32,212 bases of DNA, from assembly GCA_011390645.1 (NCBI GenBank), contig JAABRY010000030.1, positions 1 to 32,212 of the forward strand. The letters are read 5' to 3'. The notes beneath the pieces were generated by a model. That model did no database searches, had not been told where the DNA came from, and saw only the letters and a list, made by a program, of their open reading frames with translations. Positions 3,896-27,855 of the stretch are shown here, one piece after another. Numbering within the stretch: the stretch's first letter is position 1; each line of letters opens with the position of its first letter. This DNA comes from Gemmatimonadota bacterium (GTDB lineage: Bacteria; Gemmatimonadota; Gemmatimonadetes; Gemmatimonadales; GWC2-71-9). The translations under genes and the position numbers were made by a program.

Positions 3896-4105
3896 GGATG
3901 TTGGATGTTGGATGTTGGATGTTGGATGTTGGATGTTGGATGTTGGATGTTGGATGTTGGATGTTGGATGTTGGAATCGGCGAGCGGCGAACCGCATTTA
4001 GCGGCGCATCCGCAGAAATGTAGCAGGTTGGCACCTATCCCCAACATCCAATAGCCAACATCCAACATCCCACATCATCCAGGCATCAGCCGACATCCAG
4101 CATCC
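3896..4105. repeat. Heptamer element 1: GGATGTT array and degenerate inverted array
   Basis: The left arm, 3896-3975, has eleven perfect GGATGTT units plus GGA. A 67-base core follows. The right arm, 4043-4105, holds nine units of the inverse type AACATCC; units 1, 3 and 4 are exact and the rest drifted (AATAGCC, GACATCC, AGCATCC), but the 7-bp register is kept. The right arm runs into the end of the oxidase gene and supplies its last residues (MLDVG) and its TGA stop. The left arm stops three bases before the thyX ATG. Inverted arms could pair into a long hairpin or cruciform. The perfect left arm beside a decayed right arm suggests recent expansion by slippage on one side only. Confidence 0.9.
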
Positions 4106-5675
4106 CTCCGCCCCACCGCGCCTCCGCCTCCACCCGCCGCCAGGCCTCCGCCATCCCGTCGGGCAGCGGTGCCGCCGCCTCACCGACCTTCAGGTCAACG
4201 AACGGGTCGTCACCCGCAGGAATGATCACACCGGGATTCCAACGGTGGAGCGGATCGAAGGCGGCCTTGACGTGGCGGAACGCCTCGAGGGCGGTGGGCC
4301 CGAGAAACGGCTCGATCAGCCCGGCGCGAAGCCTGCCCGCCCCGTGCTCGCCGGCCGGGGTCCCCCCCAGGCGGAGCAACGCGCCGGTGACTTCCAGAAA
4401 GATCGCCCGGACCCGGTCGAGCCAGCCTTCCTGGGTGAGGTCTGGCAGGAGATTCACATGCACGTGGCCATCACCGGCGTGACCGAAGAGCACGACATCC
4501 ATATTCTGCCTGGCACAGGCCGCATCGACGGCGTCGAGATACTCCGCCAAGCGCGGGACAGGGACGCAGCCGTCCTCGATCACCTGCAGCGACCGTCGTC
4601 CATCGGTCAACGCCGCGAGCCGGGAGGATGCCCCGTGGCGTATCGACCAGAGCTCGTGGATACCGGCCGGGTCGAGCGCCTGCTCGACCTGCGCGACCCC
4701 GGGACCAAGGGCCTCCAGTTGCGCGACCAGCGCGGTGATGCGCGCCGACACGCGCTCGGCGTCCTCGTCCTCGAGGTCCACGAGCAGCACGGCAGCGACG
4801 CTCGGCGCGTCAGGGCCATGGACAATCTTCAGGAACGACGCATCAAGGAATTCGATGCGGACCGCATCTGCCTCATGCAAGCAGATGACAGTCGAGGGAA
4901 GCGCGGACCGCGCGGTGAGCATGACACGGACCGTGGCCTGCGCGGGGGCCGTGGGTGCAAGCCGGAGCCTGACTTCGGTGACGGCCCCGAGCGTGCCCTC
5001 CGCACCGATCACGAGGTCGACGAGGTCTCCGCTCTGGTACCAGGTATCGAGGGCATAGCCGAGGGTGTTCTTGCGGGTCCGGGGCCATCTGGCGAGGATC
5101 GCTTCGCGATGCTGCACGAGGTACGGAAGCGCCTCGCGGTTGAACCGCCGGACCACAGGGTGCGCAGGATCCGGGGGCACACCCCGCGCAAGCACCAGCG
5201 GCCCTTCGCCGGCCTCGAGCGTGAGCCCGTCGACCCAGGCGCGCATGGGGCCGTCGCGCACGGTTCGGGCACCCGCGGCGTTGGTGCCCACAAGTCCGCC
5301 AATCGTCGCCCATCGCGCGCTGGAGGGATCCACCGGAAGGTGGAGTCCATAGGGATGAGTCGCCGCGTGCAATGCGGCAAGCCGGACGGCCGGTGACACG
5401 ACTGCCCCGCGGGATCCGGGATCCACCACGAGCGCGTCTCGCTCGAAGGATTGGAGATCCAGCACGACGCCGCGACCGAGATTCCCCCCACCCATCGCGC
5501 TGCCGGCGGCGCGAGGCGTCAGCGAGAGCCCCGCGACCGACGCCGCCTCGATCACCTCACGGAGCGATGTCACCGTGGTTGGCCGCGCGACGGCCTGCGG
5601 CACGATCCGGTAGATCCCCCCGCCCTGCGCCACAGCGGCGCGGGCACGGAGATCGGTGTCCAGTCGAGAGGGCAT
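4086..5675 (-). CDS. FAD-linked 2-hydroxyacid oxidase/dehydrogenase (GlcD/D-lactate dehydrogenase type)
   Basis: A 529-residue flavoprotein of the VAO/FAD_binding_4 family. The N-terminal FAD domain (about 30-200) has GSAMGGGNLGRGVVLDL and TIGGLVGTNAAGARTVRDG. The middle has NTLGYALD and VIGAEGTLGAVTEVRLRL. The C-terminal FAD-oxidase domain carries the conserved FGHAGDGHVHVNLLP, GGTPAGEHGAGRLR and DPLHRWNPGVI. Such enzymes oxidise D-lactate, glycolate or related 2-hydroxyacids; the exact substrate cannot be read here. No iron-sulfur domain is fused. The last residues, MLDVG, are encoded by the heptamer element and the stop lies inside it, so the original C-terminus has probably been replaced or extended. 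Start ATG at 5675; it diverges from DUF116 across 66 bp. Confidence 0.88.
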   Translation of the reverse strand: MPSRLDTDLRARAAVAQGGGIYRIVPQAVARPTTVTSLREVIEAASVAGLSLTPRAAGSAMGGGNLGRGVVLDLQSFERDALVVDPGSRGAVVSPAVRLAALHAATHPYGLHLPVDPSSARWATIGGLVGTNAAGARTVRDGPMRAWVDGLTLEAGEGPLVLARGVPPDPAHPVVRRFNREALPYLVQHREAILARWPRTRKNTLGYALDTWYQSGDLVDLVIGAEGTLGAVTEVRLRLAPTAPAQATVRVMLTARSALPSTVICLHEADAVRIEFLDASFLKIVHGPDAPSVAAVLLVDLEDEDAERVSARITALVAQLEALGPGVAQVEQALDPAGIHELWSIRHGASSRLAALTDGRRSLQVIEDGCVPVPRLAEYLDAVDAACARQNMDVVLFGHAGDGHVHVNLLPDLTQEGWLDRVRAIFLEVTGALLRLGGTPAGEHGAGRLRAGLIEPFLGPTALEAFRHVKAAFDPLHRWNPGVIIPAGDDPFVDLKVGEAAAPLPDGMAEAWRRVEAEARWGGGMLDVG

Positions 5676-5709
5676 CCGTCAAAGCTACTGCAACGGCCCC
5701 GCCCCTTGA

Positions 5710-5730
5710 CTCCGACCGCGACAGTCGGAG
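5710..5730 (+). promoter_or_regulatory. Hairpin covering the DUF116 ribosome site
   Basis: CTCCGAC at 5710-5716 and GTCGGAG at 5724-5730 form a 7-bp perfect inverted repeat with a 7-base loop. The right arm contains GGAG, the only plausible Shine-Dalgarno site for the ATG at 5742. A TTGACT at 5706-5711 overlaps the left arm and could be a -35 box, in which case the repeat would act as a DNA operator rather than an RNA hairpin. Both readings are inference. Confidence 0.35.
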
Positions 5731-5741
5731 ATTTCGCCCAG

Positions 5742-6542
5742 ATGACCACGCCCCGTGCAGAACTGATCCACATTGACGTAGACCGTCGGCTCGGCCACGA
5801 GTGGGACGAGTGGACCGGCGAGCCCCTCCCCAACGGCGGGAACTACGATTCGCCCCCGTCGCTGTTCTTCCTTTGGGCGATCACCTCGCTCATCGTCTTC
5901 CTCGGGTTTGTGGCACTCGGGCTCTTCCTGCTCGACCCGCGTCTCGCAGACCTCCATCCCGCCCTCCCGCTCATCGTCTGGACCGGCCTCGGCCTCGTGA
6001 CGGCGGCAGCATTCGTCTGGTGGCTCATTCTCGGGATTTCCTACCTGACGCGCCGCGCGCTCCTGCCGAGAGGGCTCGGAGAGCGGGGTCTCTTCCTGCA
6101 GGTGATGCGGCTGACCTCCCGCGTGGCCTCGTGGTTCGGCAAGCGGGACTGGGTCGAGAACGCCTCCGTGAAGGTCTACAACGCCCTGGCACTGTTGCGC
6201 ACGCGCAAGGTCGGCACCGGCGAACTGCTGCTGCTGATCCCACGCTGCCTCTCGCGGGCGACCCTCGACACCGTCCTCAGCCTGGCCGGGAAGTATGGTG
6301 TCCCCGTCTTCGTGGCGACGCGCGGCCAACTCGCCCGACGGGTGATCCGCGAACGGCGGCCGCGCGCCGTGGTCGCCGTCGCCTGCGAGCGCGACATGGT
6401 GACGGGACTGCACGATGTGGCGGGAAAGGTGCCGGTCCTCGGCCTGACGATGACGCTGCCCGCAGGGCCCTGCAAGGATGCGGCGCTGGATTTCGAGATG
6501 CTGGAGCGGTATTTGGGGGCGTTTGTTGGGGTGAAGTCGTAG
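5742..6542 (+). CDS. DUF116 family membrane protein
   Basis: A 266-residue protein. Two strong membrane helices lie in the first third (SLFFLWAITSLIVFLGFVAL and LIVWTGLGLVTAAAFVWWLI), followed by a cytosolic DUF116 domain. The family's conserved cysteines are present in LIPRCLSRATL, VAVACERDMVTGL and LPAGPCKDAALDF; cysteines at these places are typical of DUF116 and may bind a metal or cluster. The biochemical role of DUF116 is not established. Start ATG at 5742; the reading frame is open upstream to 5451, but that part is antisense to the oxidase gene. The stop TAG lies in the first heptamer unit of element 2 (AAG TCG TAG), so the repeat defines the C-terminus. Confidence 0.85.
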   Translation: MTTPRAELIHIDVDRRLGHEWDEWTGEPLPNGGNYDSPPSLFFLWAITSLIVFLGFVALGLFLLDPRLADLHPALPLIVWTGLGLVTAAAFVWWLILGISYLTRRALLPRGLGERGLFLQVMRLTSRVASWFGKRDWVENASVKVYNALALLRTRKVGTGELLLLIPRCLSRATLDTVLSLAGKYGVPVFVATRGQLARRVIRERRPRAVVAVACERDMVTGLHDVAGKVPVLGLTMTLPAGPCKDAALDFEMLERYLGAFVGVKS

Positions 6543-6666
6543 GTCGTAGGTCATAGGTCGTAGGACCTGAAAGCCGGCTCCCTCCACAGGAAGCCGGCCT
6601 TCGTGCACTTACGACCTACGACCTACGACCTACGACCTACGACTTATGACCTACGACCTACGACCC
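6534..6666. repeat. Heptamer element 2: GGTCGTA inverted arrays around a hairpin
   Basis: Left arm 6534-6564 has about 4.4 units of AGGTCGT with variants (AAGTCGT, AGGTCAT). Right arm 6611-6666 has eight units of ACGACCT with variants (ACGACTT, ATGACCT). Between them lies a 46-base core holding a stem-loop. The element separates two convergent genes, and each takes its TAG stop from it with the same last codon, TCG TAG. The right arm ends in a run of C next to the lipoprotein end. Confidence 0.92.
6571..6601. terminator. Stem-loop inside heptamer element 2
   Basis: GCCGGCT at 6573-6579 pairs with AGCCGGC at 6592-6598, extended by AA/TT outside and CC/GG inside with single bulges. It lies between convergent genes and could terminate transcription from both sides. 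T-runs after the stem are short (CCTT on plus, CTTT on minus), so intrinsic termination would be moderate unless the flanking inverted arrays add to the structure. Confidence 0.5.
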
Positions 6667-7122
6667 CCCGCCGTAGGCGGCCTTCAACCCCTCCACCACC
6701 ATCCGCACCCGATTCGCCACCGGGTGTTCCCCCGACACATGCCGTTCCAGCGCGCGCCCATCCTGCGACGGATCCGCGAGGGGGCGGTGCACCACCTCGA
6801 TGGTGATCATGGCGTGGTTGGGCCGACCGGGTTCGATGATCGCGCGCACCTTGACCACGTCCGGGCCGAGGATGCGCGCGTTGGTGGGCTGGAGCGTGGT
6901 CGCATCGAACCAGGGTGTCTCGAGCCAGCCGTCCTCGGGTTCGGTGCGGCTGACCGGAATCGAATCGGCATCCAGCGCGACGGCCAGTGCGCGCGTGGCC
7001 GCGGGGACGAAGAGTTCGATCTCCGCGGTCAGCGCATCCGGCACTGGGACCAGATGCGGTCGCGTGGTCGTCGGGTAGCAGGCCGCCAGCGCGACGCAGA
7101 GCAGCATCCCCCCCCCACGCAT
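6658..7122 (-). CDS. Small putative lipoprotein
   Basis: A 154-residue protein of unknown function. From the ATG at 7122 (TGATG overlap with the preceding dehydrogenase stop) the N-terminus reads MRGGGMLLCVALAACYPTT, a short lipoprotein signal with lipobox LAAC. The mature part looks like one soluble periplasmic domain (DALTAEIELFVPAATRALAVA, then VKVRAIIEPGRPNHAMITIEV). The three glycines come from a G9 run (plus-strand C 7108-7116) between two in-frame ATGs (7122 and 7107), so a length change would disable the first start but not the second. The end GGS-stop uses the TAG of heptamer element 2. It is probably translated with the fatty-acid genes upstream; any functional link is unclear. Confidence 0.7.
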   Translation of the reverse strand: MRGGGMLLCVALAACYPTTTRPHLVPVPDALTAEIELFVPAATRALAVALDADSIPVSRTEPEDGWLETPWFDATTLQPTNARILGPDVVKVRAIIEPGRPNHAMITIEVVHRPLADPSQDGRALERHVSGEHPVANRVRMVVEGLKAAYGGGS

Positions 7123-8006
7123 CACAGGCCGAGGTCCATCGGAACGGGCGACTCGCCGCGCCAGTCGTAGAAGCCGATGCCGTTCTTCCGCCCGTGGTAG
7201 CCGGCGGCGACCATCCGCCGCAGCAGCGGCGTGGGGGCGTATCGTGCGTCGCGGTATTGGTCGAACATGATCTCGCCGATTTGCACCACGGTGTCGAGGC
7301 CGACCGTGTCGAGCAGCGTGAAGGGCCCCATCGGGTGCCCGGCCCCCAGGCGCATCGCCGTGTCGATGTCGGCGATCGTGCCACTGCCCTGCTCGAGGGC
7401 ACGGACGGCATCGAGGAGGTACGGCACGAGCAGCAGGTTCACGATGAAGCCCGAGGTATCGCGTGCGGCGACGGGCACCTTGCCGATCGCGTGAGCGAAG
7501 TCCATCATCGCCGCCACGATGTCTGGCGACGTGCGGATCGAGCGGACGACCTCGACCAGCGGCATCAACGGGACCGGATTGAAGAAGTGGAGTCCGACGA
7601 GCCGCTCGGGATGTTGCAGGCCGTGGGCCTGATCCACGACCGACAGCGACGAGGTATTGGTCGCGAAGGGCACGTCCGCGCGGCAGAGTCGCTCCAGCGT
7701 GGCCCACAGCGCCCGCTTTGCCTCCAACTGCTCGACGATCGCCTCGATGACGAGGTCGCAGCCGACGAGATCGGCGACATCGGGCACGAAGTGCAGGCGG
7801 GTCAAGGCGGCATCGCGGGCTTCCGGCGCGAGCTTCCCCTTCTCGACGAACTTCGCGAGCGAGGCCTCGATCGCGCCGCGCGCGGCGTTGATCTGCGCGC
7901 CGTTGCTGTCATGGACGCGCACCACGAGCCCGGCGGTCGCGATCACCTGCGCGATGCCGCGTCCCATCAAGCCCGCGCCTACGACCCCTACTGTCTCGAT
8001 CGCCAT
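7122..8006 (-). CDS. 3-hydroxyacyl-CoA (3-hydroxybutyryl-CoA) dehydrogenase
   Basis: A 294-residue NAD-dependent dehydrogenase. The Rossmann motif GVVGAGLMGRGIAQVIA is at the N-terminus, followed by the family segments DLVIEAIVE, FATNTSSLSV and GLHFFNPVPLMPLVEVV (with the catalytic His) and DTSGFIVNLLLVPYL. The C-terminal domain shows MRLGAGHPMGPFTLLDTVGLD and ends with GFYDW. Length and motifs fit the single-function Hbd/PaaH type rather than a FadB fusion. It oxidises 3-hydroxyacyl-CoA to 3-ketoacyl-CoA, or runs in reverse in butyrate or PHB-type metabolism. The ATG at 8006 overlaps the upstream stop (TGATG), behind GAGGAG; a GTG one codon earlier is possible. It shares the transcript with the thiolase upstream. 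Confidence 0.92.
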   Translation of the reverse strand: MAIETVGVVGAGLMGRGIAQVIATAGLVVRVHDSNGAQINAARGAIEASLAKFVEKGKLAPEARDAALTRLHFVPDVADLVGCDLVIEAIVEQLEAKRALWATLERLCRADVPFATNTSSLSVVDQAHGLQHPERLVGLHFFNPVPLMPLVEVVRSIRTSPDIVAAMMDFAHAIGKVPVAARDTSGFIVNLLLVPYLLDAVRALEQGSGTIADIDTAMRLGAGHPMGPFTLLDTVGLDTVVQIGEIMFDQYRDARYAPTPLLRRMVAAGYHGRKNGIGFYDWRGESPVPMDLGL

Positions 8007-8881
8007 CACTTCTCCTCGAGGGCCTTGCGCACCTCGGTGGTGATTTCCCGCACTGCCGACCCGACGCCGCGGGCAATCGTGCGGGACCGCGGTTCCGGCG
8101 GCAGTCGCCCGCCGCTTGCGTTCGGTTGCCGCTCAAGGTGGTCGAGCACGCGCGCGAGCCCGAGCCCCGTGCGCTCGGCGATCGGGAGATAGGCACGCGC
8201 GGTGGCGAGACCACCCACTGCCCCGGCCATCCCCGGCAGCAGGGCGAGCAGCTCGCCCGCGGGTGAGCCGACCAGCGTGAGCAACCCGGCACTCATCGCC
8301 ACGCCGATCGTCCCGACCACGGCACCACCCGCCACATAGCCCGAGCGTGACTTCCGCACGGTGGCGGACAGGGCGACATGACAGAACCCAGCCTCCAGCG
8401 GGGTGATCACCGCGGTCACCAGCGTTGCCTTGTCGAGGTAGCGCCGGCCGGCGGAACTGTCGAAGACACGCTTCAGCGCACGCATCCCGGCGGCGAGTGA
8501 GTCGAGGGGTTCGAAGGTGATGCGCCCGGGGATCGCACGCTGCACCGTGAAGTGCTCCTCGCGATCCAGCAACACCGTGAGTGCCTTCGCCACGTCGGCT
8601 TCGCTCCCCTGCACCACGCGGTCGGCCTGGAAATCGGCCGGTGCCAGCGCGTGGTCGAGCCATCCGGCATTCACATGGGGTGCGACGCGGGTGCGCTCCT
8701 CGAGGAGTGCCTGCCGCAACTGCACCTCGGGAATCCCGACCTCGTGTCCGAGGGCGATCACTTCGTCTTCGGTGAGCCCCTCGCCGATGTCACGCGAGAC
8801 CGCCTGCAACTCCGCCGCGCGTTGCAGCACGCGCTCGAAAGTGGCACGATCAATCCGCGCGGGGAGATGCGGTGACGTCAT
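8006..8881 (-). CDS. Uncharacterised protein with helical N-domain and two membrane helices
   Basis: A 291-residue protein that I do not recognise by name. The N-terminal 65 residues are helical and contain GLTEDEVIALGHEVGIPE, a module I would expect at the front of other hypothetical proteins. The middle (about 80-185) is mixed soluble sequence. Two hydrophobic segments follow near 190-245 (YVAGGAVVGTIGVAMSAGLL and LLALLPGMAGAVGGLATA), glycine-rich like a hairpin in the membrane. The tail is basic and ends in EVRKALEEK. It lies between the thiolase (10-bp gap) and the dehydrogenase (1-bp overlap), so it is surely co-transcribed with them. The context says acyl-CoA metabolism; the sequence gives no catalytic motif. 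Confidence 0.75.
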   Translation of the reverse strand: MTSPHLPARIDRATFERVLQRAAELQAVSRDIGEGLTEDEVIALGHEVGIPEVQLRQALLEERTRVAPHVNAGWLDHALAPADFQADRVVQGSEADVAKALTVLLDREEHFTVQRAIPGRITFEPLDSLAAGMRALKRVFDSSAGRRYLDKATLVTAVITPLEAGFCHVALSATVRKSRSGYVAGGAVVGTIGVAMSAGLLTLVGSPAGELLALLPGMAGAVGGLATARAYLPIAERTGLGLARVLDHLERQPNASGGRLPPEPRSRTIARGVGSAVREITTEVRKALEEK

Positions 8882-8891
8882 CGCGGCCGCC

Positions 8892-10085
8892 TCAGCTCGC
8901 GAACCCTTCGACGATCACGGCGATTCCCTGCCCGCCACCGATGCACGCCGACCCCAGTCCGATCCCCCCCCCACGTGCGCGCAACGCATGCAGGAGGTGC
9001 GTGGTGATGCGCGCACCACTCGCGGCAAGCGGGTGACCGATCGCGATCGCGCCACCGTGCACGTTGGTGCGATCGCGGTCGAGCCCCAGCTCGCGTTCCA
9101 CCGCCAGATACTGCGCGGCGAACGCCTCGTTGACCTCGACGAGGTGCATCGCGTCGAGCGACATCGCCGCGTGCGCGAGTGCCTTGCGCGCCGCCGGCGC
9201 GGGGCCGATGCCCATCTCCGTGGGCGGGACGCCCGCCACGCCCCAGCCGATCAGGCGGCCAAGGGGGCGCACGCCGACCGCGGCCGCGTGCGCGGCCGTG
9301 GTCATCACCAGCATCGACGCGCCATCATTGATTCCCGATGCCGTCCCGGCGGTCACGGTGCCGTCCGCATGCGTGATGGCCGGCAGCCGCGCGAGCGACT
9401 CGAGCGTGGTCCCCCCACGGATGTGCTCATCGAGTGCCCACGCGACATCCTGCTTCGTCTTGCGGTCGCGGATCATCACCGGAATCACCTCATCGGTGAA
9501 CACACCGCCGGCCCATGCCGCGGCCGCTGCCTGTTGTGAGCGCACCGCATACGCCTCACACTCGGCGCGGGTGATGCCGTACTTCGTCGCGAGATTCTCT
9601 GCGGTGTCACTCATCGCGCAGCCGCCGTACGAATCGCGCAGCCCCTCGTAGAGGGAATCCTCGAGCATCGGCGACGGGCCGTACTTGATCCCCCAGCGCG
9701 CCCCGCGCACCATGTGCGGGGCCTGGCTCATGTTCTCGGTGCCGCCCGCGAGCACCACCGTCGCCTCGCCAAGGAGCAGGCGATGGGCGCCCTGAATCAC
9801 CGCCTCGAAGCCGGAGCCGCAGAGACGATTGACCGTGACGGCTGGCGTTTCAATCGGGAGGCCCGCGCGCAGCCCGACGTGGCGCGCACAGTACATCGCG
9901 TCGCGTGAGGTGGGCATCGCATTGCCGACGATGACATGGTCCACGCTCGCCCGGTCGAGTCCGCCGCGGTCGAGCGCGGCATCAGCGGCGATGACGCCGA
10001 GGTCGGTCGCGGTGAAGTCCTTGAGGGCACCACCAAAGGTGCCGAACCCCGTGCGCACGGCGGCGCAGAAGACGATGTCGGTCAT
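8892..10085 (-). CDS. Acetyl-CoA C-acetyltransferase (thiolase)
   Basis: A 397-residue thiolase of normal length. The nucleophilic cysteine is C89 in VNRLCGSGFEA. The second half has VEVNEAFAAQYLAVE, the catalytic His in GGAIAIGHPLAASGAR and the acid-base Cys in GSACIGGGQG. It cleaves 3-ketoacyl-CoA with CoA or condenses two acetyl-CoA. With the 3-hydroxyacyl-CoA dehydrogenase two genes downstream it makes two successive steps of beta-oxidation or of acetoacetyl/3-hydroxybutyryl-CoA formation. The region after the start is heptamer element 3, so the promoter probably lies in or upstream of that element. A G9 run (plus-strand C 8964-8972) encodes three of the glycines just before the last catalytic motif. 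Confidence 0.94.
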   Translation of the reverse strand: MTDIVFCAAVRTGFGTFGGALKDFTATDLGVIAADAALDRGGLDRASVDHVIVGNAMPTSRDAMYCARHVGLRAGLPIETPAVTVNRLCGSGFEAVIQGAHRLLLGEATVVLAGGTENMSQAPHMVRGARWGIKYGPSPMLEDSLYEGLRDSYGGCAMSDTAENLATKYGITRAECEAYAVRSQQAAAAAWAGGVFTDEVIPVMIRDRKTKQDVAWALDEHIRGGTTLESLARLPAITHADGTVTAGTASGINDGASMLVMTTAAHAAAVGVRPLGRLIGWGVAGVPPTEMGIGPAPAARKALAHAAMSLDAMHLVEVNEAFAAQYLAVERELGLDRDRTNVHGGAIAIGHPLAASGARITTHLLHALRARGGGIGLGSACIGGGQGIAVIVEGFAS

Positions 10086-10119
10086 CTTGGGAATCTAGCG
10101 GTGTTGGCGGGGAGGCTGG

Positions 10120-10233
10120 GGTGAAACGTGAAAGGTGAAAGGGGAGCCGTCCACGAAGCGTGATGTGCCAGACAGGCCGATGGTGCACCCGCACCCCCTT
10201 TCACGTTTCACCTTTCACGTTTCACCTTTCACC
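10120..10233. repeat. Heptamer element 3: GGTGAAA inverted arrays
   Basis: Left arm 10120-10140 has three units (GGTGAAA, CGTGAAA, GGTGAAA) plus GGGG. Right arm 10199-10233 has five units of TTTCACC/TTTCACG, preceded by a run of C. The core is about 55 bases. Arms pair through GGGG/CCCC and the units. The last unit gives the zinc-ribbon gene its stop (GGG TGA). In both arms the first base of the unit alternates between G and C. Confidence 0.9.
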
Positions 10234-10924
10234 CCAACCCGCCCCCACACTCCGGACAGAAGCTCCACTCCCGCTCCACCGTGGTTCCGCACCCTGGGCA
10301 GCTCGGCGCGCGCTGGTCGGCACCGCACGCGACGCAGAACTTCACGACCCGGTCGGTCGGGAGCGGGGTCTGGCAGCTCCAACAACTGGGGCCGGGTGGG
10401 GAGAAGGCCACACCGGTCAGGAACTCCGCCGGTGGCTCGTCCGGCATTCTGGGCTCAGGCTGGGCCTCGATCGCAACCTCGGGACGGATCGGGAAGACCG
10501 TGCGCGGCGAGGGTGGGCTGGGTTCAGCGACCACAGGCGAGACCGTCGGGGGAGGCTCAGGTGAGGCCACTGGCATCGGACGGACACCCTCCAGCCGATC
10601 GATCGCGTCATCGGTGAAGGTCATCGCGGCAGAATGGAGACGGCGCAGCAGGTCGAGGTCCGGCAGCTTGCTGGCAAGCGTCTCCCGGGCCATCGCCGCG
10701 GCAGCCGACGGTTCGGTCTGCACCAGGCCGCCCTCTTCGGCGATCAGCCTGAGGACCAGCATCTCGTAGTCCTCGCTGACGTCGATGCCGAGGAGTTTCC
10801 GCGCCGTCCGATACGGAAGCGTCCGGTCGAGCAGGGAGCCCACGGCGATCGCGTCGCCCTGATGGCGACCTTCCTGGAGCCATTCAGCCAGAAGGACGGC
10901 GGCGAAGCGTTCGAGGTCGGTCAT
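10229..10924 (-). CDS. Zinc-ribbon protein with helical N-domain
   Basis: A 231-residue protein with three parts. Residues 1-115 are helical (MTDLERFAAVLLAEWLQEG ...) without a known catalytic motif. Residues 116-175 form a Pro/Glu-rich linker. The C-terminus is a double zinc ribbon: CWSC, CVACG, CPGCG and CPECG, giving four CxxC knuckles for two Zn sites. Such tails occur on scaffold and regulatory proteins in many bacteria; the function here is unknown. The start ATG overlaps the RNase H stop (ATGA). The C-terminal stop is the TGA of the first repeat unit of element 3, right after GGGLG. Confidence 0.75.
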   Translation of the reverse strand: MTDLERFAAVLLAEWLQEGRHQGDAIAVGSLLDRTLPYRTARKLLGIDVSEDYEMLVLRLIAEEGGLVQTEPSAAAAMARETLASKLPDLDLLRRLHSAAMTFTDDAIDRLEGVRPMPVASPEPPPTVSPVVAEPSPPSPRTVFPIRPEVAIEAQPEPRMPDEPPAEFLTGVAFSPPGPSCWSCQTPLPTDRVVKFCVACGADQRAPSCPGCGTTVEREWSFCPECGGGLG

Positions 10925-11556
10925 CCCTTGCCCTCCGCAATGGGGAAACGCTCGCCCGCGGCGAGTCGCTGCTCCAGCGCCGCAAACGCGGCATCCGGAT
11001 CATACTGCGCAAAGAGGCCCTTCGCCTGCTTCGCCGCGAGCCAGTCGGCGTACCCCGAGGGGACGATGCCTTCGGAGGTCACCTGCTCGGTGGCGGCACG
11101 AATGGCAAGATCGTTGGCGTATTCGTTCTTCGGGTGACCAGCGTGGCCGCGCACCCAGGTGAACTGGGCATCGTGCTTCTCGAGCGACGGCAGCAGCGCC
11201 TGCCACAGCGCCAGGTTCTCGATCGGCCCACCCTTCCGGGTCCAGCCGCGCGCCTTCCAGCCGGGGGCCCATTCGCGAACGCCCTTCACGAGGTACTCGG
11301 AGTCACTGATGATCAACACCCGCAATCGGTTGCCCTTGTGGGCGAGGAGCTGCAGCGCCGCGATCGCACCGGCCAGGGCCATCCGATTATTGGTCGTGGC
11401 CGGCGCGTGGAGATAGAACTCGCGTCGCTCCACGCCAGCGCCGGAGCGGATTTCCACCAATCCGCCGGCTCCGCCGGGATTGTCACCCGGCTTGCCATTG
11501 CCGAGACAGGATTCATCGAGATGCAGGATGGCAATCGGAAGCGGCTTGGTGGTCAG
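10921..11556 (-). CDS. RNase HI-like protein with non-canonical active site
   Basis: Reads as an RNase H fold of about 211 residues if started at the CTG at 11556, which overlaps the previous stop (CTGA). The first strand then includes the catalytic Asp (LPIAILHLDESCLGNG, D14). The usual second catalytic residue, Glu in the NNRMEL motif of E. coli RNase HI, is Ala here (TTNNRMALAGAI, A60). The third (D85 in ISDSEYLVKGV), the substrate-binding His (RGHAGHPKNEY) and the last Asp (ANDLAIRA) are present. The segment GWTRKGGPIENLALWQAL matches the handle region. A C-terminal extension of about 60 residues (SGYADWLAAKQAKGLFAQYD ...) is unusual. The only ordinary start, TTG at 11460, would drop the first Asp. 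It may act on RNA:DNA hybrids or only bind them. Confidence 0.8.
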   Translation of the reverse strand: MTTKPLPIAILHLDESCLGNGKPGDNPGGAGGLVEIRSGAGVERREFYLHAPATTNNRMALAGAIAALQLLAHKGNRLRVLIISDSEYLVKGVREWAPGWKARGWTRKGGPIENLALWQALLPSLEKHDAQFTWVRGHAGHPKNEYANDLAIRAATEQVTSEGIVPSGYADWLAAKQAKGLFAQYDPDAAFAALEQRLAAGERFPIAEGKG

Positions 11557-11777
11557 GAATCAATTACCTGGAAGAAGTCGAGATCGTCGAGCACGAAGAG
11601 CATCTCCTCACCCGTCATCGCGAGGTAGCCCGAGAGGGCCTCGCGACCACGCGAGGTGGTGAGCGCACTGGCCACCACCACGTACTCGTTCCCGCGGCGG
11701 CGCAGGATCACCCGCTGCCGCTTCTGCACGGCATGCTCGAGTTGTTCCATGCGGGTGGGGGTCCAGCGGAAGGTCAT
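11553..11777 (-). CDS. Small conserved-looking protein, function unknown
   Basis: A 74-residue soluble protein, basic in the first half (QKRQRVILRRRGNEYVVVA) and acidic at the end (EEMLFVLDDLDFFQVIDS). It has no signal peptide, membrane helix or cysteine. Start ATG at 11777; heptamer element 4 begins three bases upstream, so no clear ribosome site is seen. Its stop overlaps the proposed CTG start of the RNase H-like gene, so the two are translationally linked. The Arg-rich strand could touch nucleic acid, but that is a guess. Confidence 0.6.
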   Translation of the reverse strand: MTFRWTPTRMEQLEHAVQKRQRVILRRRGNEYVVVASALTTSRGREALSGYLAMTGEEMLFVLDDLDFFQVIDS

Positions 11778-11780
11778 GTG

Positions 11781-11930
11781 AGGTCGTAGGTCGTAGGTCG
11801 TAAGTCGTAAGTCGCAGGTCGTGTTGAATGTAGTCCACTGCGCGCAGGACGGATGATCCCTCTCGAGCAGTCCTTCGACCTACGACCAATGACCAATGAC
11901 CTATGACCTATGACCTATGACCTACGACCC
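11781..11930. repeat. Heptamer element 4: GGTCGTA inverted arrays
   Basis: Left arm 11781-11822 holds six units (AGGTCGT three times, AAGTCGT, AAGTCGC, AGGTCGT). Right arm 11875-11930 holds eight units (TCGACCT, ACGACCA, ATGACCA, four ATGACCT, ACGACCC). The core is 52 bases. The right arm ends with a C run and gives the TAG stop of the membrane protein at 11922 (TCG TAG), the same joint as in element 2. The two arms carry different variant units (GTCGTAA on the left, GGTCAT on the right), so they have expanded separately. Confidence 0.92.
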
Positions 11931-12275
11931 CCCAATCAACCGCCCCACCACCCAGCCCAGCCCGCCCACCACCAGCGCCCCAGCCAGTCCATAGAGCGGC
12001 ATCCGAATGTTGCACTTGGTCTGGTCGTCATCGTTGTAGGAGCAAGCACCCATCCCGATGAACGTCCCGAAGGCTCCCCCGAGTATGCCGCCGGTGATGA
12101 CCCCGACGGTCGAACCCGAGACACGACGCATCGACGCGCTCAGGGCGTGAGCTGTCTCAGCGGCAACTGGCACCCGAGTTGGGAGCGAATGGGCGGATGG
12201 CCCCGCGACGCGTGCCTGCGCCAGCAGAGGAATCGGTAGCAGGAGAAGTGCAAGCGAGAGCGCGACAGATCTCAT
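11922..12275 (-). CDS. Small exported or membrane protein with glycine-zipper helices
   Basis: A 117-residue protein of unknown role. It has a clear signal peptide (MRSVALSLALLLLPIPLLAQA), a short polar part, then two glycine-rich helices: GVITGGILGGAFGTFIGMG and YGLAGALVVGGLGWVVGRL. The loop between them is acidic and has a cysteine pair (ACSYNDDDQTKCN) that could form a periplasmic disulfide. Glycine-zipper hairpins of this kind occur in small outer-membrane or inner-membrane proteins. The last codons, GGS-stop, run into heptamer element 4. The gene stands alone between element 4 and a short degenerate repeat. Confidence 0.65.
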   Translation of the reverse strand: MRSVALSLALLLLPIPLLAQARVAGPSAHSLPTRVPVAAETAHALSASMRRVSGSTVGVITGGILGGAFGTFIGMGACSYNDDDQTKCNIRMPLYGLAGALVVGGLGWVVGRLIGGS

Positions 12276-12294
12276 GGGAGCACGCCAGGAGGTT

Positions 12295-12324
12295 GGATGT
12301 TGGACGTTCGCGGTTCACGGTTCG
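12295..12324. repeat. Short degenerate heptamer patch (element 5)
   Basis: GGATGTT at 12295-12301 and GGACGTT at 12302-12308 are followed by CGGTTCA and CGGTTCG at 12311-12324. It looks like a small or decayed relative of elements 1 and 6. It fills the 39-bp gap between two genes, and the amidohydrolase stop TGA (12315-12317) lies in it. With only about two units per side, chance cannot be excluded. Confidence 0.5.
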
Positions 12325-16354: not shown

Positions 16355-16357
16355 TCG

Positions 16358-19080: not shown

Positions 19081-19157
19081 GTCGTAGGTCGTAGGTCGTA
19101 GGTCGTAGGACCTCGGTTGGCCATCTGCCGTTCACCGTTCACCGTTCACCGTTCACC
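19081..19157. repeat. Heptamer element 6: mixed arms, GTCGTAG and TTCACCG
   Basis: Left arm 19081-19108 has four perfect GTCGTAG units plus G. Right arm 19131-19157 has nearly four TTCACCG units (inverse of GGTGAAC). The 22-base core has no clear stem. Unlike elements 1-4 the two arms are of different families and cannot pair with each other, yet the polarity is the same: GG-units on the left, CC-units on the right. A single GGTGAAAGG-like copy (19067-19073) lies at the hydrolase start. It separates nosY from the hydrolase gene. Confidence 0.88.
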
Positions 19158-19163
19158 AATCCC

Positions 19164-19955: not shown

Positions 19956-20674
19956 GCGACCGCCAGTGCCGCGCCGCCAGCGAGCAGCCGCGCGACGGCA
20001 CGTTCGAGGGTCGGTTCCCCGGTGTGCCGCTCGAGCTCCCGCACCGCGCCGGCCCACGCCGCGCGCCCGGCATCGAGGTACAGCACGTCGTCGGCGAGTT
20101 CCTCAAGTTCCGGCAACACATGCGACGTGATCAGCACCGTGGTGCCGCGGGCCCGCTCGGCGAGGAGTCGATCCTTGAGCACGCGGCACGCCAAGGGATC
20201 GAGGCCGGCGGTGGGCTCGTCGAGGATCAGCACCGAGGGACGAAACGCCATGGCGAGGACCGCGTTGACCTTCTGCCGCATGCCGCCCGAGAGCACACCG
20301 AGTGGGCGATCGAACTGATCTCCAAGGTCAAAGGCATCGGCGAGCGACAGATCGGGCGCCATGTCATCGCCACGCAATGCGGCGAGCATGCCGAGCAGGT
20401 CACGGCCGCTGAGATGCGCAGGAAAGCGCGCAATCTGGGGCATGTAGCCGATCTGGCGGCGATACTCCGGCGACCCGTCGAGCAGGCGATCGCCCACCGC
20501 CACGGTGCCGGCGTCGGCCCGGGCGAGCCCGAGGAGAATCTTGAGGAAGGTCGTCTTGCCGGCACCGTTGGGCCCGAGCAAGGCGGTGACGCGTCCCCCG
20601 ATCATCGTGGCGTCGAGGCCTGCCAGGACCACCCGCGTTCCGAACCGCTTGGCCAGCCCACGTACATGAATCAT
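19952..20674 (-). CDS. nosF: NosF ABC ATPase
   Basis: A 240-residue ATPase. Walker A is GPNGAGKTTFLK, the Q-loop is in YMPQIARFP, the signature is LSGGMRQKV, Walker B is VLILDEPTAGLD and the H-loop His is in LITSHVLPELEE. It energises the NosY permease with NosD as partner in making the Cu-S centre of N2O reductase. The ATG at 20674 overlaps the NosD stop (ATGA), behind GGAGG. Length and motif spacing are normal for NosF. The C-terminal part (HTGEPTLERAVARLLAGG) is short and Ala-rich. Confidence 0.9.
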   Translation of the reverse strand: MIHVRGLAKRFGTRVVLAGLDATMIGGRVTALLGPNGAGKTTFLKILLGLARADAGTVAVGDRLLDGSPEYRRQIGYMPQIARFPAHLSGRDLLGMLAALRGDDMAPDLSLADAFDLGDQFDRPLGVLSGGMRQKVNAVLAMAFRPSVLILDEPTAGLDPLACRVLKDRLLAERARGTTVLITSHVLPELEELADDVLYLDAGRAAWAGAVRELERHTGEPTLERAVARLLAGGAALAVA

Positions 20675-22942: not shown

Positions 22943-24982
22943 TCAGCGCCCGCCCTTCCCGCCAGCGGGTGCGACCGGAGCCGCTGCCGATGGCGGCACG
23001 GTCCGCGCCGCCCGCGCCTGCTGCGTGGCCGACCGCTCACTCAGCCCGGCGGTGAGCTTCACGCCACTCCCGGGGGCGCTGACCCGCAGGTAGCCCTGCA
23101 TCTCCTGGTGCAGCGCGCTGCAGAAGTCGGTGCAGTAGAACGGATAGACCCCTGGCTCCTGCGGCACAAACTTGATCGTGCGCGTCTCGCCGGGGGCAAT
23201 GATGATTTCTGCCGTCCGCATGCCGAGGACCGCGAAGCCGTGCACGATGTCCCAGTCCTGCTCGATGCTGGTCACGTGCCAGTACACGGTATCACCGACC
23301 TCGACGCCTTCGATCACGTCGGGCGCGAAGTGTGAACGCACCGCGATCGCCTTGACGTGCACCGCCTTGCCCCGCCGCTCGACCGTTGCCTCCGCCTCGG
23401 ACTTGGTGGCCCAGGGGTGGGTGTTGTCGGCCAGCGAGAAGAACTTCACCTGCTTGTCCTTGATCATCGACGCCGGCAGCGCTTGCGCGTAGTGCGGCTC
23501 GCCCTGCGTCGGGAAGTCGAGCAGCATCTCCATCTTCTCGCCGCTGATGTCAATCAACTGGGCCGAGTGGGTCAGCTCCGCACCGGTCGGGAGGTAGCGA
23601 TCCTTGGTGATCTTGTTCATCGCCACCAGATACTTGCCCCACGGCGTGACACCGTCCCCACCGGGAATCATCAGGTGACCAACCGAGTAGTACACGGGCA
23701 TGCGGTCGAGCACTTCCCAGGTGCCCAGCTTCCACTTCACCACTTCGGACGAGATGAACATCGTGGTGTAGGCGTTGCCCTTGCCGTCGAATTCGGTGTG
23801 CAGCGGCCCCAGCCCCGGGCGCTCCACTTCGCCTGCAATCACCGACTCGTAGCGCAGCACCGGGATGCCATCGAGTTCGTTCTCGAAATCCTTCGCCTCG
23901 ATCGCCGCGAGCATCTTGGTGAAGGAGTGCACCGGGATCACCGAGGCGAGCTTGCCACCCCCGACGATGTACTCGCCGGTCGGGTCCACATCCACGCCAT
24001 GCGGCGACTTCGGGGTCGGGAGGAAGTAGAGCACCCCCGGACAATCGGCCGGCACCAGCATCTTCACTGAGGTCTTGGTCTCACTGGTCGCGCTGCGCGA
24101 GCCATGATCCATCGTGTTGTGCATGTACCGCGCTGGCGCGACCTTCGCCTTGCCATCGGCGACGCACTTCTCGGCGACCTTCCAATTGACCGCCGCGATG
24201 TAGTCCTTGTCGTTCTTCGAGGCGTTCAGCTCGAGCAGCGTATAGGCCTGTTCGGTGTTGTAGGTCGTGAAGAAGAACCACCCCTCCGACTTCGCCTTGC
24301 CCGCGCGGCCGAGGTCGTAGTTGTACCCCGGCATCAGGATCTGGAAGGCGATGTCCATCTCGCCCGGCTTGTTCGCGGTCACGAACGAGAGCGAGCCCTT
24401 GAAGTTCTGCTTGTACGTCTCGATCGGCACGTCCTTGTTCGGGACGGGCAGCGAGAAGCGCACCGCCGACACCAGGTACTCCGAGTTCGGGGTCACGAAC
24501 GGCGAGGCATGGCCACCGGCCGAGTGCGGGATCTCGATGATCTCGTCGGTTTCGAAGGTGGTCAGGTCAATGCGCGCAACGCGCGGCGTGTTGTTGCCGT
24601 TGATGAAGAGCCAGCGTCCGTCAGGCATCCCGTCGGTCTGGGAGAGCTGCGGATGGTGGGTGTCGTCCCACGGGAGGAAGCCGTAGGAGGTCTCCAGCAT
24701 CGGCTTGGTTTCCTCGGAGTAGCCGTACCCGTTCTCGGGGAACTGCGAGAAGACGGGAATCGTCTTGAGCAGGCGCCCGGACGGGAGCCCATACACGGTC
24801 ACATTGCCACTGTAGCCGCCGGACATGAACGAGTAGTACTCGTCATGCTCTCCTGGCGGGACATAGGTGCGGCTCGCCGCATCGCCCGTGACCAATCGCG
24901 AGGGGCTGGGCGCGCTGCACGCCACTGCGCCGAGCGCGAGCGTCGCGAGTGCTGCCTGCCCGAACCACCGTTGTACCGCCAT
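22943..24982 (-). CDS. nosZ: Nitrous oxide reductase, Sec-exported clade II type
   Basis: Reduces N2O to N2 in the periplasm. The 679-residue chain starts with a Sec lipoprotein signal (MAVQRWFGQAALATLALGAVAC, C22) and not a Tat motif, which marks clade II. The seven-bladed propeller carries the CuZ histidines in DDTHHPQLSQTDG, PHSAGGHASPF, ARYMHNTMDHGS, PKSPHGVDVDP, GPLHTEFDG and SVGHLMIPGGD. The C-terminal cupredoxin has the CuA ligands in VHGFAVLG and FYCTDFCSALHQEMQGYL. A tail of about 45 Ala/Pro/Ser-rich residues after the CuA domain is longer than usual. Start ATG at 24982 has GAGG five bases upstream. A Crp-type palindrome lies 121-136 bp upstream. No nosR or cytochrome gene is in the window. 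Confidence 0.97.
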   Translation of the reverse strand: MAVQRWFGQAALATLALGAVACSAPSPSRLVTGDAASRTYVPPGEHDEYYSFMSGGYSGNVTVYGLPSGRLLKTIPVFSQFPENGYGYSEETKPMLETSYGFLPWDDTHHPQLSQTDGMPDGRWLFINGNNTPRVARIDLTTFETDEIIEIPHSAGGHASPFVTPNSEYLVSAVRFSLPVPNKDVPIETYKQNFKGSLSFVTANKPGEMDIAFQILMPGYNYDLGRAGKAKSEGWFFFTTYNTEQAYTLLELNASKNDKDYIAAVNWKVAEKCVADGKAKVAPARYMHNTMDHGSRSATSETKTSVKMLVPADCPGVLYFLPTPKSPHGVDVDPTGEYIVGGGKLASVIPVHSFTKMLAAIEAKDFENELDGIPVLRYESVIAGEVERPGLGPLHTEFDGKGNAYTTMFISSEVVKWKLGTWEVLDRMPVYYSVGHLMIPGGDGVTPWGKYLVAMNKITKDRYLPTGAELTHSAQLIDISGEKMEMLLDFPTQGEPHYAQALPASMIKDKQVKFFSLADNTHPWATKSEAEATVERRGKAVHVKAIAVRSHFAPDVIEGVEVGDTVYWHVTSIEQDWDIVHGFAVLGMRTAEIIIAPGETRTIKFVPQEPGVYPFYCTDFCSALHQEMQGYLRVSAPGSGVKLTAGLSERSATQQARAARTVPPSAAAPVAPAGGKGGR

Positions 24983-26438: not shown

Positions 26439-27137
26439 ATGCCCGATGTGATCGCGCTCCTGCGGGGCGCCCCGATCTTTGCCGACCTGAGTGAGGCCGT
26501 CCTCTCCCGCCTCGCCGCGCGCTGCGTCCCGCGTACCGTCGGCGAGGGGTTCTCCCTCTTCCGCTCGGGCGACTCCTGCCAAGGGACGTATTTCGTGCTC
26601 GAGGGGCGCGTGCGGATCTACCGCACCTCGGCGAGCGGGCAGGAACAGACCCTTGCCGTGGAAGGCGCCGGGCGCCCGGTGGCGGAATTGCCGATGTTCG
26701 ACGGTGGCACCTACCCCGCCTCGGCCGTGACCACCATGCCGGCCCGGCTGATCTACCTGCCCCGCGCCGAGTTCGAACACGCCTTCCGCACCGATCCTGA
26801 CGTGGCGGCCGCGGTGGTGCGCGCCTTGGGGCGCCGCCTCCGCCACCTGGTCCAGCTCGTGGAAACGGTGGCGTTCCGTGACGTGGCCGCTCGGCTGGCG
26901 ATGATCCTCGCCGACTACGCCGATCGCGATGGGACAATCACTGCCGACGGGGTAGCGCTGGTGCTCGAGCGAACCCAGGATGAGCTGGCCGCCGAGATCG
27001 GCACGGCACGGGAATCGGTCTCGCGGGCCTTCAAGCAGTTGCAGGCGAAAGGGTTGTTGCGCGAGCGGAAGGGAAGTCGGCTCCTGCTGGTGCCAGCGGA
27101 CCGGCTGCGGGGATGGGCGCGTGGCGACGGCACGTGA
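26439..27137 (+). CDS. Crp/Fnr-family transcription regulator
   Basis: A 232-residue regulator. An N-terminal cyclic-nucleotide-binding-like beta barrel (LFRSGDSCQGTYFVLEGRVR) is followed by a long dimer helix (VVRALGRRLRHLVQLVETVAF) and a C-terminal helix-turn-helix (TQDELAAEIGTARESVSRAF). The four cysteines of oxygen-sensing Fnr are missing, and only two isolated Cys are present, so an NO-haem sensor of the DNR/NnrR kind or another ligand is more likely. The recognition helix keeps Arg-Glu-x-x-x-Arg (about R191, E192, R196), as in CRP, which contacts GTGA. That agrees with the GTGA-N6-TCAC sites at 26395 and 25103. ATG at 26439; the frame is open upstream, but that part overlaps the site. 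Confidence 0.85.
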   Translation: MPDVIALLRGAPIFADLSEAVLSRLAARCVPRTVGEGFSLFRSGDSCQGTYFVLEGRVRIYRTSASGQEQTLAVEGAGRPVAELPMFDGGTYPASAVTTMPARLIYLPRAEFEHAFRTDPDVAAAVVRALGRRLRHLVQLVETVAFRDVAARLAMILADYADRDGTITADGVALVLERTQDELAAEIGTARESVSRAFKQLQAKGLLRERKGSRLLLVPADRLRGWARGDGT

Positions 27138-27183
27138 GACATCCGTCACGGCGGGGGCGCGTGACGGTGACGAGCTTGGAGGC

Positions 27184-27714
27184 ATGAATCCTCCCTTTCC
27201 TGATTTCGACCCGTCCAGGATCATCGAGCTGGACGTGCGTGACATCCTGCGAGGCGGTGGTGAGCCACTCCCGCAAATCCTGGCGGCCGCTGATCGCCTG
27301 CTGAGTGGCTGGGTCCTGCACCTGCGCTCGCCCTTTCAGCCCGTCCCGCTCTACGCGGTGATGGCCGAGCGCGGCTTCCGACATCACAGCACGATGTTCG
27401 CGGGTGACGACTGGTCCACCTGGTTCTGGCGGGCGAGCGAAGAGGCGGAAGCCACCCACACCGCGCCGGCGCCGGCGCTCCCACGCACTCCGGCGCCCCC
27501 GGATGCGCGTGACCTCCGCGACCTCCCCCCCCCAGAACCGCTCCTGGCGATTCTCGCGCACGTCCAGGACGTCGGTACCGCCTGCCGGATGGTCCTGCCC
27601 TATGCACCGACACCGCTCGCGACGCTGCTTGACGGGCATGGCTGGGAGGTCGGACCCAGCGAGACGCTGGCCGACGGCAGCGTGGTGGTGGCGATTCGGC
27701 CGCGGGGCGGCTGA
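27184..27714 (+). CDS. DUF2249 protein, two copies of the domain
   Basis: A 176-residue soluble protein. The first DUF2249 domain (about 13-82) starts with ELDVRDILRGGGEPLPQIL and has LHLRSPFQPVPLYAVMAERG. A Pro/Ala-rich linker (TAPAPALPRTPAPPDARDLR) joins a second, weaker copy (about 118-170: LLAILAHVQDVGTACRMVLP, then PLATLLDGHGWEV). DUF2249 is common beside NO and N2O metabolism genes and near hemerythrins; its action is not known. It follows the Crp-family gene by 46 bp with TTGGAGG before the ATG and is probably co-expressed. The gap carries GTCAC and GTGAC half-sites but not in the GTGA-N6-TCAC form. A C9 run (27525-27533) encodes Pro at the linker end. Confidence 0.78.
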   Translation: MNPPFPDFDPSRIIELDVRDILRGGGEPLPQILAAADRLLSGWVLHLRSPFQPVPLYAVMAERGFRHHSTMFAGDDWSTWFWRASEEAEATHTAPAPALPRTPAPPDARDLRDLPPPEPLLAILAHVQDVGTACRMVLPYAPTPLATLLDGHGWEVGPSETLADGSVVVAIRPRGG

Positions 27715-27746
27715 CAGCGAACGGCGATCGGCAAGCAGGGAACGGC

Positions 27747-27855
27747 GGTGAAAGGTGAAAGGTGAAAGGGATCCGTCCCTACCCGTTTCACGTTTCACGT
27801 TTTACCTGTTGCCGTTCCCCCTCACCCCTCACCCCTCACCCCTCACCCCTCACCA
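27747..27855. repeat. Heptamer element 7: GGTGAAA inverted arrays followed by CTCACCC array
   Basis: Left arm 27747-27767 has three perfect GGTGAAA units. After an 18-base core (GGGATCC and inverse-like GTCCCTACCC) come three inverse units TTTCACG, TTTCACG, TTTTACC at 27786-27806. A 14-base gap then leads to five CTCACCC units at 27821-27855 (inverse of GGTGAGG). So this locus holds two families on one side. It separates the convergent DUF2249 gene and the ABC permease. No gene takes its stop from it; the permease stop is 7 bp beyond the last unit. Confidence 0.92.

What the first reader, a model, noticed from the sequence alone, without database searches (positions are those of the whole stretch)
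3896..27855. A family of inverted 7-bp repeat arrays at operon boundaries
Seven loci (3896-4105, 6534-6666, 10120-10233, 11781-11930, 12295-12324, 19081-19157, 27747-27855) carry tandem 7-bp units. The unit differs by locus: GGATGTT, GGTCGTA, GGTGAAA, GGTGAAC, GGTGAGG. The period is always 7, the unit nearly always begins with GG, and the layout keeps one polarity: GG-units on the left, then a core of about 20-70 bases, then CC-ending inverse units. All are between genes, and the intervals between them match whole transcription units. Heptanucleotide tandem repeats are known in cyanobacteria (STRR), but those are single direct arrays as far as I recall. Units of different sequence in one architecture suggest a process that copies 7 bases at a time, whatever they are, or selection for hairpins at operon ends.
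Basis: partly seen in the sequence, partly recalled or inferred. Interest (0 to 1): 0.88.

Follow-up and report, generated by a model that had tools for sequence, protein, structure and literature searches.

The report
GG-first seven-base palindromes between genes
A bacterium of the Gemmatimonadota group fills many gaps between its genes with mirror-paired runs of seven-base repeats that should fold into hairpins in RNA; the repeat differs from gap to gap and species to species while its orientation stays the same, and the cause of that was not found here.

Summary
The window is a contig of a genome whose named relatives are Gemmatimonadota. In 599.8 kb of that genome I found 144 tandem arrays of period 7, against 8, 0 and 12 of periods 6, 8 and 9; 134 of 144 lie between called genes. 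Neighbouring arms of opposite type run G-rich then C-rich in 63 of 64 cases over four samples; the exception straddles a probable missed gene. Arms mostly carry the same unit: 27 of 35 pairs within one base, 9.7 expected; 22 of 23 in 80 related loci, 5.8 expected. At one orthologous gap 13 loci carry arrays with 12 units. Five of the window's seven loci fold strongly, two do not. Convergent gaps without arrays fold about as strongly, so the arrays are most likely one source of hairpins at transcript ends. The polarity is unexplained. The kind is known: Rehm et al. 2015 report G-rich heptamer arrays in Xanthomonas, with inverted pairs and the same position rule. New here: many units per genome, arms matched per locus, unit turnover at orthologous sites.

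The parts
3896..3975 (+). G-type arm, GGATGTT x 11.4, begins 3 bases from the thyX start codon (thyX 3137-3892, minus strand)
4041..4105 (-). C-type arm, CCAACAT units (4041-4076 regular, then decayed), reaching into the end of the FAD-linked oxidase gene 4086-5675
   Evidence: RNA fold of 3893-4085 (minus strand) z -7.6
6536..6564 (+). G-type arm, GGTCGTA x 4; its first unit supplies the TAG stop of the DUF116 gene 5742-6542
6565..6609 (.). core between the arms; holds a separate GC-rich stem-loop
   Evidence: sequence; fold
6610..6665 (-). C-type arm, TACGACC x 8; overlaps the end of the convergent minus-strand gene 6658-7122
   Evidence: fold of 6534-6666 z -12.2
10121..10142 (+). G-type arm, GGTGAAA with one CGTGAAA
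10199..10233 (-). C-type arm, TTTCACC/TTTCACG alternating
   Evidence: fold of 10119-10234 z -6.1
11781..11821 (+). G-type arm, GGTCGTA x 6
11872..11929 (-). C-type arm, TATGACC/TACGACC x 8
   Evidence: fold of 11781-11930 z -8.6
12288..12323 (+). single imperfect G-type array (GGATGTT, then GTTCRCG units), no partner, no unusual fold
   Evidence: score 11; fold of 12285-12330 z -0.35
19081..19109 (+). G-type arm, GGTCGTA x 4
19128..19157 (-). C-type arm with a different unit, CCGTTCA x 4; the two arms do not pair
   Evidence: fold of 19080-19158 z +0.33
27747..27769 (+). G-type arm, GGTGAAA x 3.3, convergent gap
27784..27802 (-). C-type arm 1, CGTTTCA x 2.7
27818..27854 (-). C-type arm 2, CCCCTCA x 5.3 (unit unlike the other two)
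   Evidence: fold of 27746-27856 z -3.9

Best explanation
These are intergenic palindromes built of 7-bp tandem units: a G-rich array, a core of about 50 bases, and a C-rich inverse array with usually the same unit. Shown: period 7, intergenic position against the gene edges, G-first polarity, arms matched locus by locus, and different units at the same gap in different species. Inferred: each array lengthens and is homogenised in place by replication slippage, so units turn over quickly. Arms are kept matching mainly because the pair is useful as a stem in RNA. They are one of several interchangeable sources of hairpins at transcript ends and between cistrons, acting as terminators without a U-tract or as barriers to 3-prime exonucleases. 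The polarity is a real extra constraint that this explanation does not derive.
For: Arm pairing: duplex energy of cognate arms -31.6 against -19.2 kcal/mol for non-cognate, 0 of 20000 permutations; same unit within one base in 27 of 35 pairs (9.7 expected) and 22 of 23 in the 80 related loci (5.8 expected). Counting arms below detection, in gaps up to 600 bp, a complementary partner lies on the 3-prime side of the G strand for 76 of 119 arrays here and 64 of 90 in related loci, on the 5-prime side for 0 and 2; the same search in another array-bearing gap succeeds in 31% and 10%, in a random gap in 8% and 2%. Covariation across loci at one gene pair: GGATTGC/GGATTGC, GGAACGC/GGAACGC, GGAATGC/GGAATGC twice, GGAGTGC/GGAATGC. 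Locus-level, not genome-wide, identity: L066 has GGAACGC, GGATTGC, GGTGCGT and GGTGAGA pairs at four sites. Link to transcript ends: convergent gaps fold strongly with arrays (mean z -5.3, n 14) and without (-4.3, n 13; difference p 0.37); divergent gaps without arrays do not (0.0, n 38); co-directional gaps -3.7 with (n 40), -1.2 without (n 40), p 0.0003. Arrays in 64 of 197 gaps of at least 60 bp with a stop codon against 8 of 60 divergent gaps, p 0.003. U-tract terminator-like sites were not above chance in window 3000-20000 (6 found, 4.9 expected).
Against: Eight of 35 pairs have arms differing by two or more bases, seven of them by 3-4, yet keep the polarity; window 19080-19158 and 12285-12330 do not fold unusually. 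Divergent gaps are not avoided in the related loci (8 of 69 against 56 of 391, p 0.71). At the thyX gap 10 of 13 loci have only a C-type array detected, five of them in gaps of 17-33 bp, too short for a hairpin. A hairpin needs no polarity, and ordinary hairpins here show no G-first bias (16 against 17, 11 ties, own sample). No RNA data were available.
Confidence: 0.5

Rival explanations
1. Mutational by-product without function: once a short inverted repeat exists, polymerase stalling at the hairpin favours slippage when the newly made strand is G-rich, so only G-first palindromes grow until coding sequence stops them. The polarity then comes from the copying step, not from use.
For: Polarity holds for matched and mismatched arms and in co-directional, convergent and divergent gaps. 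Arrays abut gene edges: 60 of 118 start within 15 bp of the gene on their 5-prime side, 3 of 118 on the other. 15 of 67 arrays have swallowed the stop codon. Unit turnover between species.
Against: Arms match better than independent slippage would give. Fold strength follows gap type even without arrays. Beyond the arrays, decayed unit remnants are richer on the gene side than on the core side (about 3.8 against 3.4 of 7 matches, control 3.3), while unit-to-unit divergence inside long arrays is higher on the core side (0.57 against 0.45; related loci 0.77 against 0.31), so the direction of growth is unclear.
Confidence: 0.3
2. G-quadruplex elements as proposed for the Xanthomonas and Nostoc heptamers: the G strand folds into a quadruplex and the paired arm is secondary.
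For: Same polarity and position rule as in PMC4692102 (sections 10 and 13 read); 70 of 144 arrays fit a two-G quadruplex pattern.
Against: Only 7 of 144 arrays fit a pattern with runs of three or more G; the commonest copy numbers are 3 (50 arrays) and 4 (46), no peak at 4, though detection cuts off below about 2.6; matching arms are not needed for a quadruplex.
Confidence: 0.07
3. Mobile or trans-templated element: a REP-type transposase, or a telomerase-like reverse transcriptase, writes the units.
For: One Y1 transposase gene in the genome; the G-first order resembles two 3-prime ends each extended with G-strand repeats and then joined.
Against: The Y1 gene is flanked by its own unrelated palindromes, and no Y1 match is found in the array-bearing G009 (98% complete) or G083 (94%). 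No reverse transcriptase match in this 86%-complete genome. Several units coexist per genome with arms matched per locus, which one trans template would not give.
Confidence: 0.05
4. Arrays of binding sites for a DNA- or RNA-binding protein, as suggested for TAACTGA repeats in Beggiatoaceae.
For: Regular spacing and gene-edge position.
Against: The unit changes from locus to locus and species to species at the same gap, which a fixed recognition sequence would not allow.
Confidence: 0.05

Closest known systems
GGGAATC / GGGGA(C/T)T heptamer repeats of Xanthomonas and Nostoc (Rehm et al. 2015, PMC4692102; sections 3, 10, 13, 14, 16 and found passages read)
   Same: Period 7, G-rich strand, intergenic; array nearer to the ORF on its 5-prime side whatever the ORF's orientation; convergent inverted pairs (70 in Xcc, 75 in Xac, few in Nostoc); single-or-paired type usually preserved between the two Xanthomonas species; length varies.
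   Different: There one unit family per genome was studied, with runs of three or four G, read as a quadruplex. Here 24 distinct modal units in one 600-kb sample (some one base apart) with mostly two-G runs, arms matched locus by locus, and different units at one orthologous gap in related species.
STRR repeats of cyanobacteria (named in the finding; I saw only search listings, and Rehm's introduction, which mentions three heptanucleotides in Calothrix)
   Same: Tandem heptanucleotides in a bacterial genome.
   Different: No inverted locus-matched arms are described in what I saw.
TAACTGA direct repeats of Beggiatoaceae (MacGregor 2015, PMC4679880; abstract and section 8 read)
   Same: Abundant intergenic heptamer arrays, many beside start codons.
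   Different: One fixed unit, related heptamers rarely repeated, one indirect repeat against 169 direct sets.
REP / BIME / REPIN palindromes with RAYT transposases (recalled; opening of the abstract of PMC2817692 seen in a listing)
   Same: Intergenic palindromes, often between cistrons.
   Different: Fixed palindrome per family, spread by a transposase; the Y1 gene in this genome sits among other palindromes.

Membership tests
G-rich intergenic heptamer SSRs (Rehm type) | tandem units of 7, over-represented against other unit lengths | tested here: met
   144 against 0-16 for other periods except 14 (30)
G-rich intergenic heptamer SSRs (Rehm type) | intergenic, G strand nearer its 5-prime ORF | tested here: met
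   134 of 144 intergenic; nearer the 5-prime gene in 95 of 118; weaker in other samples, 62 of 93, 18 of 21 and 9 of 15
G-rich intergenic heptamer SSRs (Rehm type) | convergent inverted pairs occur | tested here: met
   63 G-then-C pairs, 1 C-then-G
G-rich intergenic heptamer SSRs (Rehm type) | unit GGGNATC or GGGGAYT with G runs of three or more (quadruplex) | tested here: not met
   7 of 144 arrays have such a pattern; units differ
G-rich intergenic heptamer SSRs (Rehm type) | preference for four units | tested here: inconclusive
   50 arrays of 3, 46 of 4, 19 of 5; detection cuts off below about 2.6 units
REP/REPIN spread by a RAYT | palindrome family beside and dependent on a Y1 transposase | tested here: not met
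Telomerase-like reverse transcription products | reverse transcriptase in the genome | tested here: not met
   no PF00078 match; genome 86% complete, so absence is not certain
Intrinsic (U-tract) terminators | GC-rich stem followed by a run of T | tested here: not met
   window 3000-20000 only, 6 sites against 4.9 expected, none at the arrays of that stretch
Known RNA family | Rfam match | tested here: not met
   0 matches in the window at gathering scores

The most novel reading that the evidence does not exclude
G-first order is a general law of bacterial heptamer palindromes (here 63 to 1 across Gemmatimonadota; by published description also in Xanthomonas), set by an undescribed copying step that adds 7-base units to a G-rich strand at hairpin-stalled sites. 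That step builds hairpins at gene borders and rewrites their sequence in every species while keeping their shape, so that non-coding structure is conserved without conserved sequence.
Probability: 0.2. Interest if true: 0.8.

Novelty: new variant of a known kind. Interest (0 to 1): 0.5.

Why it matters
If right, gene borders in a bacterial phylum carry a structure conserved as architecture (period 7, G-first, arms matched) while its sequence is replaced from species to species. That makes two open questions testable: why bacterial long simple repeats favour 7 bases, and what sets the strand polarity already noted in Xanthomonas and Nostoc. It would also give a sequence-independent way to look for transcript ends in genomes poor in U-tract terminators.

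Tried and rejected
Reverse-transcriptase (telomerase-like) writing: no RVT_1 match in the genome. RAYT/REP: one Y1 transposase, flanked by its own palindromes; no Y1 match in array-bearing G009 and G083. Stop-codon supply as the reason for polarity: 102 of 134 own units carry a stop triplet on the G strand, but only 18 of 96 in the related loci, where 19 of 23 pairs have no stop triplet yet keep the order. Avoiding Shine-Dalgarno-like G runs before starts: the order also holds in convergent gaps, 13 to 0 over four samples. Weaker RNA:DNA hybrid of the C arm: no difference for GGTCGTA or GGATGTT, though there is one for GGTGAAA and others (parameters recalled). General hairpin asymmetry: own sample 16 against 17; in related loci convergent hairpins lean G-first (14 to 3) and co-directional ones the other way (28 to 45). 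Mirrored block copying between arms: not seen. Direction of growth: contradictory signs. Rfam: nothing. Mean lag-7 autocorrelation at the thyX gap is highest of lags 2-19 (0.372; lag 14 0.369; others at most 0.327), but the best lag of 4-13 is 7 in only 11 of the 39 co-directional gaps of 40-600 bp; of the other 41 loci 33 had shorter gaps, 4 an opposite-strand neighbour and 4 no upstream gene. Papers opened without use: PMC4666352 (outline and abstract), PMC4060949 (word search, no hits). Not done: strain comparison, RNA ends, other phyla in the same pipeline.
Full report
What was examined. The window is contig C155 of a draft genome (2.93 Mb, 295 contigs, 86% complete). The 80 loci found by its ThyX come from records nearly all titled Gemmatimonadetes, Gemmatimonadota or members of that phylum (at least one genome gave two loci, so loci are not all separate species). 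I read the window, 20 stretches of the same genome by contig number (four all N, dropped) and 20 more from contigs already seen to hold arrays: 599,761 bases in 25 contigs. I also used the 80 related loci (1.17 Mb) and, chosen for their hits, ten stretches each of two relatives, G009 and G018.

Period. With one scoring rule for all periods, this genome has 144 arrays of period 7; periods 6, 8, 9 and 12 give 8, 0, 12 and 16, period 14 gives 30, and a Markov copy at most 2 for any period. In the less selected first part exact runs were 34 of period 7 and 8 of all others. The 80 related loci give 131 of period 7 (35 inside called genes) against 31, 18 and 44 of periods 6, 8 and 9 (27, 8 and 38 inside genes). 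Forty of the 80 loci have at least one intergenic period-7 array, against 8, 5 and 4 with periods 8, 9 and 6.

Units. The commonest units here are GGTGAAA (31), GGTCGTA (23), GGTGAAC (16), GGATGTT (15) and GGGGTGA (13) of 144. In 102 genomes of the family, species differ in what they use: counted as overlapping pattern hits, this genome has 320, 335 and 111 for the three unit groups searched; G009 has only the GGYGAAM group, G008 only GGTCRTW, G018 64 of GGYGAAM and 1 of GGTCRTW, G073 only GGATRTT. Only 16, 11 and 5 of the 102 genomes have any hit to the three groups, though others may carry other units.

Position and polarity. With my own gene calls (520 genes, 88% coding) 134 arrays fall into 82 gaps and 10 inside called genes. 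Neighbouring arms of opposite type are G then C in 35 cases and C then G in one. That one joins window 11872-11929 to 12288-12323 and straddles ORF 11922-12275, a probable gene that my caller missed. The 80 related loci give 23 to 0, G009 3 to 0 and G018 2 to 0. The order holds in co-directional, convergent and divergent gaps. Within 30 bp of a stop codon the G strand is the sense strand in 103 of 117 arrays, and within 30 bp of a start codon the C strand is sense in 39 of 47, over the four samples (G018 alone gives 3 and 3 at starts). An array starts within 15 bp of the gene on the 5-prime side of its G strand in 60 of 118 cases and ends within 15 bp of the other gene in 3 of 118; facing a stop codon the median distance is 6 bp. 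In the other samples the corresponding counts are 52 against 9 of 93, 11 against 3 of 21 and 9 against 3 of 15. Rehm et al. (PMC4692102, sections 10 and 13) describe the same rule for Xanthomonas and Nostoc.

Arm matching. Of 35 pairs 27 have units within one base of each other against 9.7 expected when arms are dealt out anew (0 of 20000 shuffles). In the related loci it is 22 of 23 against 5.8 (0 of 10000). Cognate arms form better RNA duplexes than non-cognate. A sensitive search finds a complementary partner on the core side for 76 of 119 arrays here and 64 of 90 in related loci, on the gene side for 0 and 2; in another array-bearing gap the rate is 31% and 10%. The order of variant units in the two arms is not mirrored.

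Same gap, different unit. The gene pair FAD-linked oxidase and thyX is adjacent in 70 of the loci compared, the window included. Thirteen carry detected arrays (threshold 10), with 12 different units (for example GGATGTT, GGTCGAA, GGTGAGA, GGGTGTC twice; some are one base apart), each with a C-type array towards thyX; three of the thirteen show both arms. At a second gene pair 11 of 24 loci carry arrays, and the five with both arms read GGATTGC, GGAACGC, GGAATGC, GGAATGC in both, and GGAGTGC with GGAATGC. One genome (L066) has different matched pairs at four sites, so matching is a property of the locus, not of the genome.

Folding and gap type. The window loci at 3893-4085, 6534-6666, 10119-10234, 11781-11930 and 27746-27856 fold far better than shuffles (z -7.6, -12.2, -6.1, -8.6, -3.9), and 19080-19158 and 12285-12330 do not (+0.33, -0.35). 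Over gaps of 70-300 bp (the first 40 per class at most), convergent gaps fold strongly with arrays (mean z -5.3, 11 of 14 below -3) and without (-4.3, 9 of 13). Co-directional gaps do so mainly with arrays (25 of 40 against 6 of 40). Divergent gaps without arrays do not (1 of 38) and with arrays weakly (3 of 8, difference p 0.28). This is the main evidence that the palindromes are one source of a hairpin wanted at transcript ends. Divergent gaps are under-used here (8 of 60 against 64 of 197, p 0.003) but not in the related loci (p 0.71).

What stays open. The polarity has no shown cause; the candidate causes tested do not fit (Tried and rejected). Whether units are added by slippage alone, and whether the hairpins terminate transcription, protect RNA or do nothing, needs experiments.

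Novelty. Six literature searches in the held library (only the top 15-30 papers of each were listed) brought up Rehm et al. 2015 and MacGregor 2015 as the closest descriptions. Other listed papers concern heptamer repeats in phase variation of single genes, such as the 7-bp repeats of Haemophilus hmw (listing only). None of the listed titles and abstract openings describes several heptamer units with locus-matched inverted arms, or heptamer palindromes in Gemmatimonadota. Most subscription papers are not held, so this is no proof of absence.

Noticed in passing
window 11922-12275 (minus): Probable small exported protein (117 aa, signal-like N-terminus by eye) missed by my gene caller; it separates two array loci and accounts for the single polarity exception.
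   Followed up: partly
window 13646-14458 (minus): Lysine- and alanine-rich repeat protein (KKAATKK-type, histone H1-like by recall) with 33/66-bp DNA repeats; no Pfam match.
   Followed up: no
window 22943-24982 (minus) and neighbours to 19164: Nitrous oxide reductase-like gene (Pfam nos_propeller) followed by what look like accessory genes (a NosD-like repeat protein, an ABC ATPase and a permease, by recall).
   Followed up: no
own genome C30:15309-15653 (L129): Single Y1 (RAYT-like) transposase gene flanked by its own GCTCGCGGCT..AGCCGCGGC-type palindromes, a separate repeat family.
   Followed up: partly
own genome, for example C1:58466-58691, C116:29720-29948, C2:4315-4564: A second intergenic element, TGTCATYCCGAGC..., sits in or beside heptamer palindromes: 7 of 10 copies in the sample lie within 250 bp of an array.
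   Followed up: partly
L046, upstream of thyX: The same inverted architecture with what looks like period 8 (GGGGAAAC units left, CCCCGTTT-type right), so 7 is not absolute.
   Followed up: no
G082 (family genome): The control pattern (the GGYGAAM unit read backwards) has 24 hits in this genome and 1 in the other 101, so a reversed-order unit seems to be in use there.
   Followed up: no
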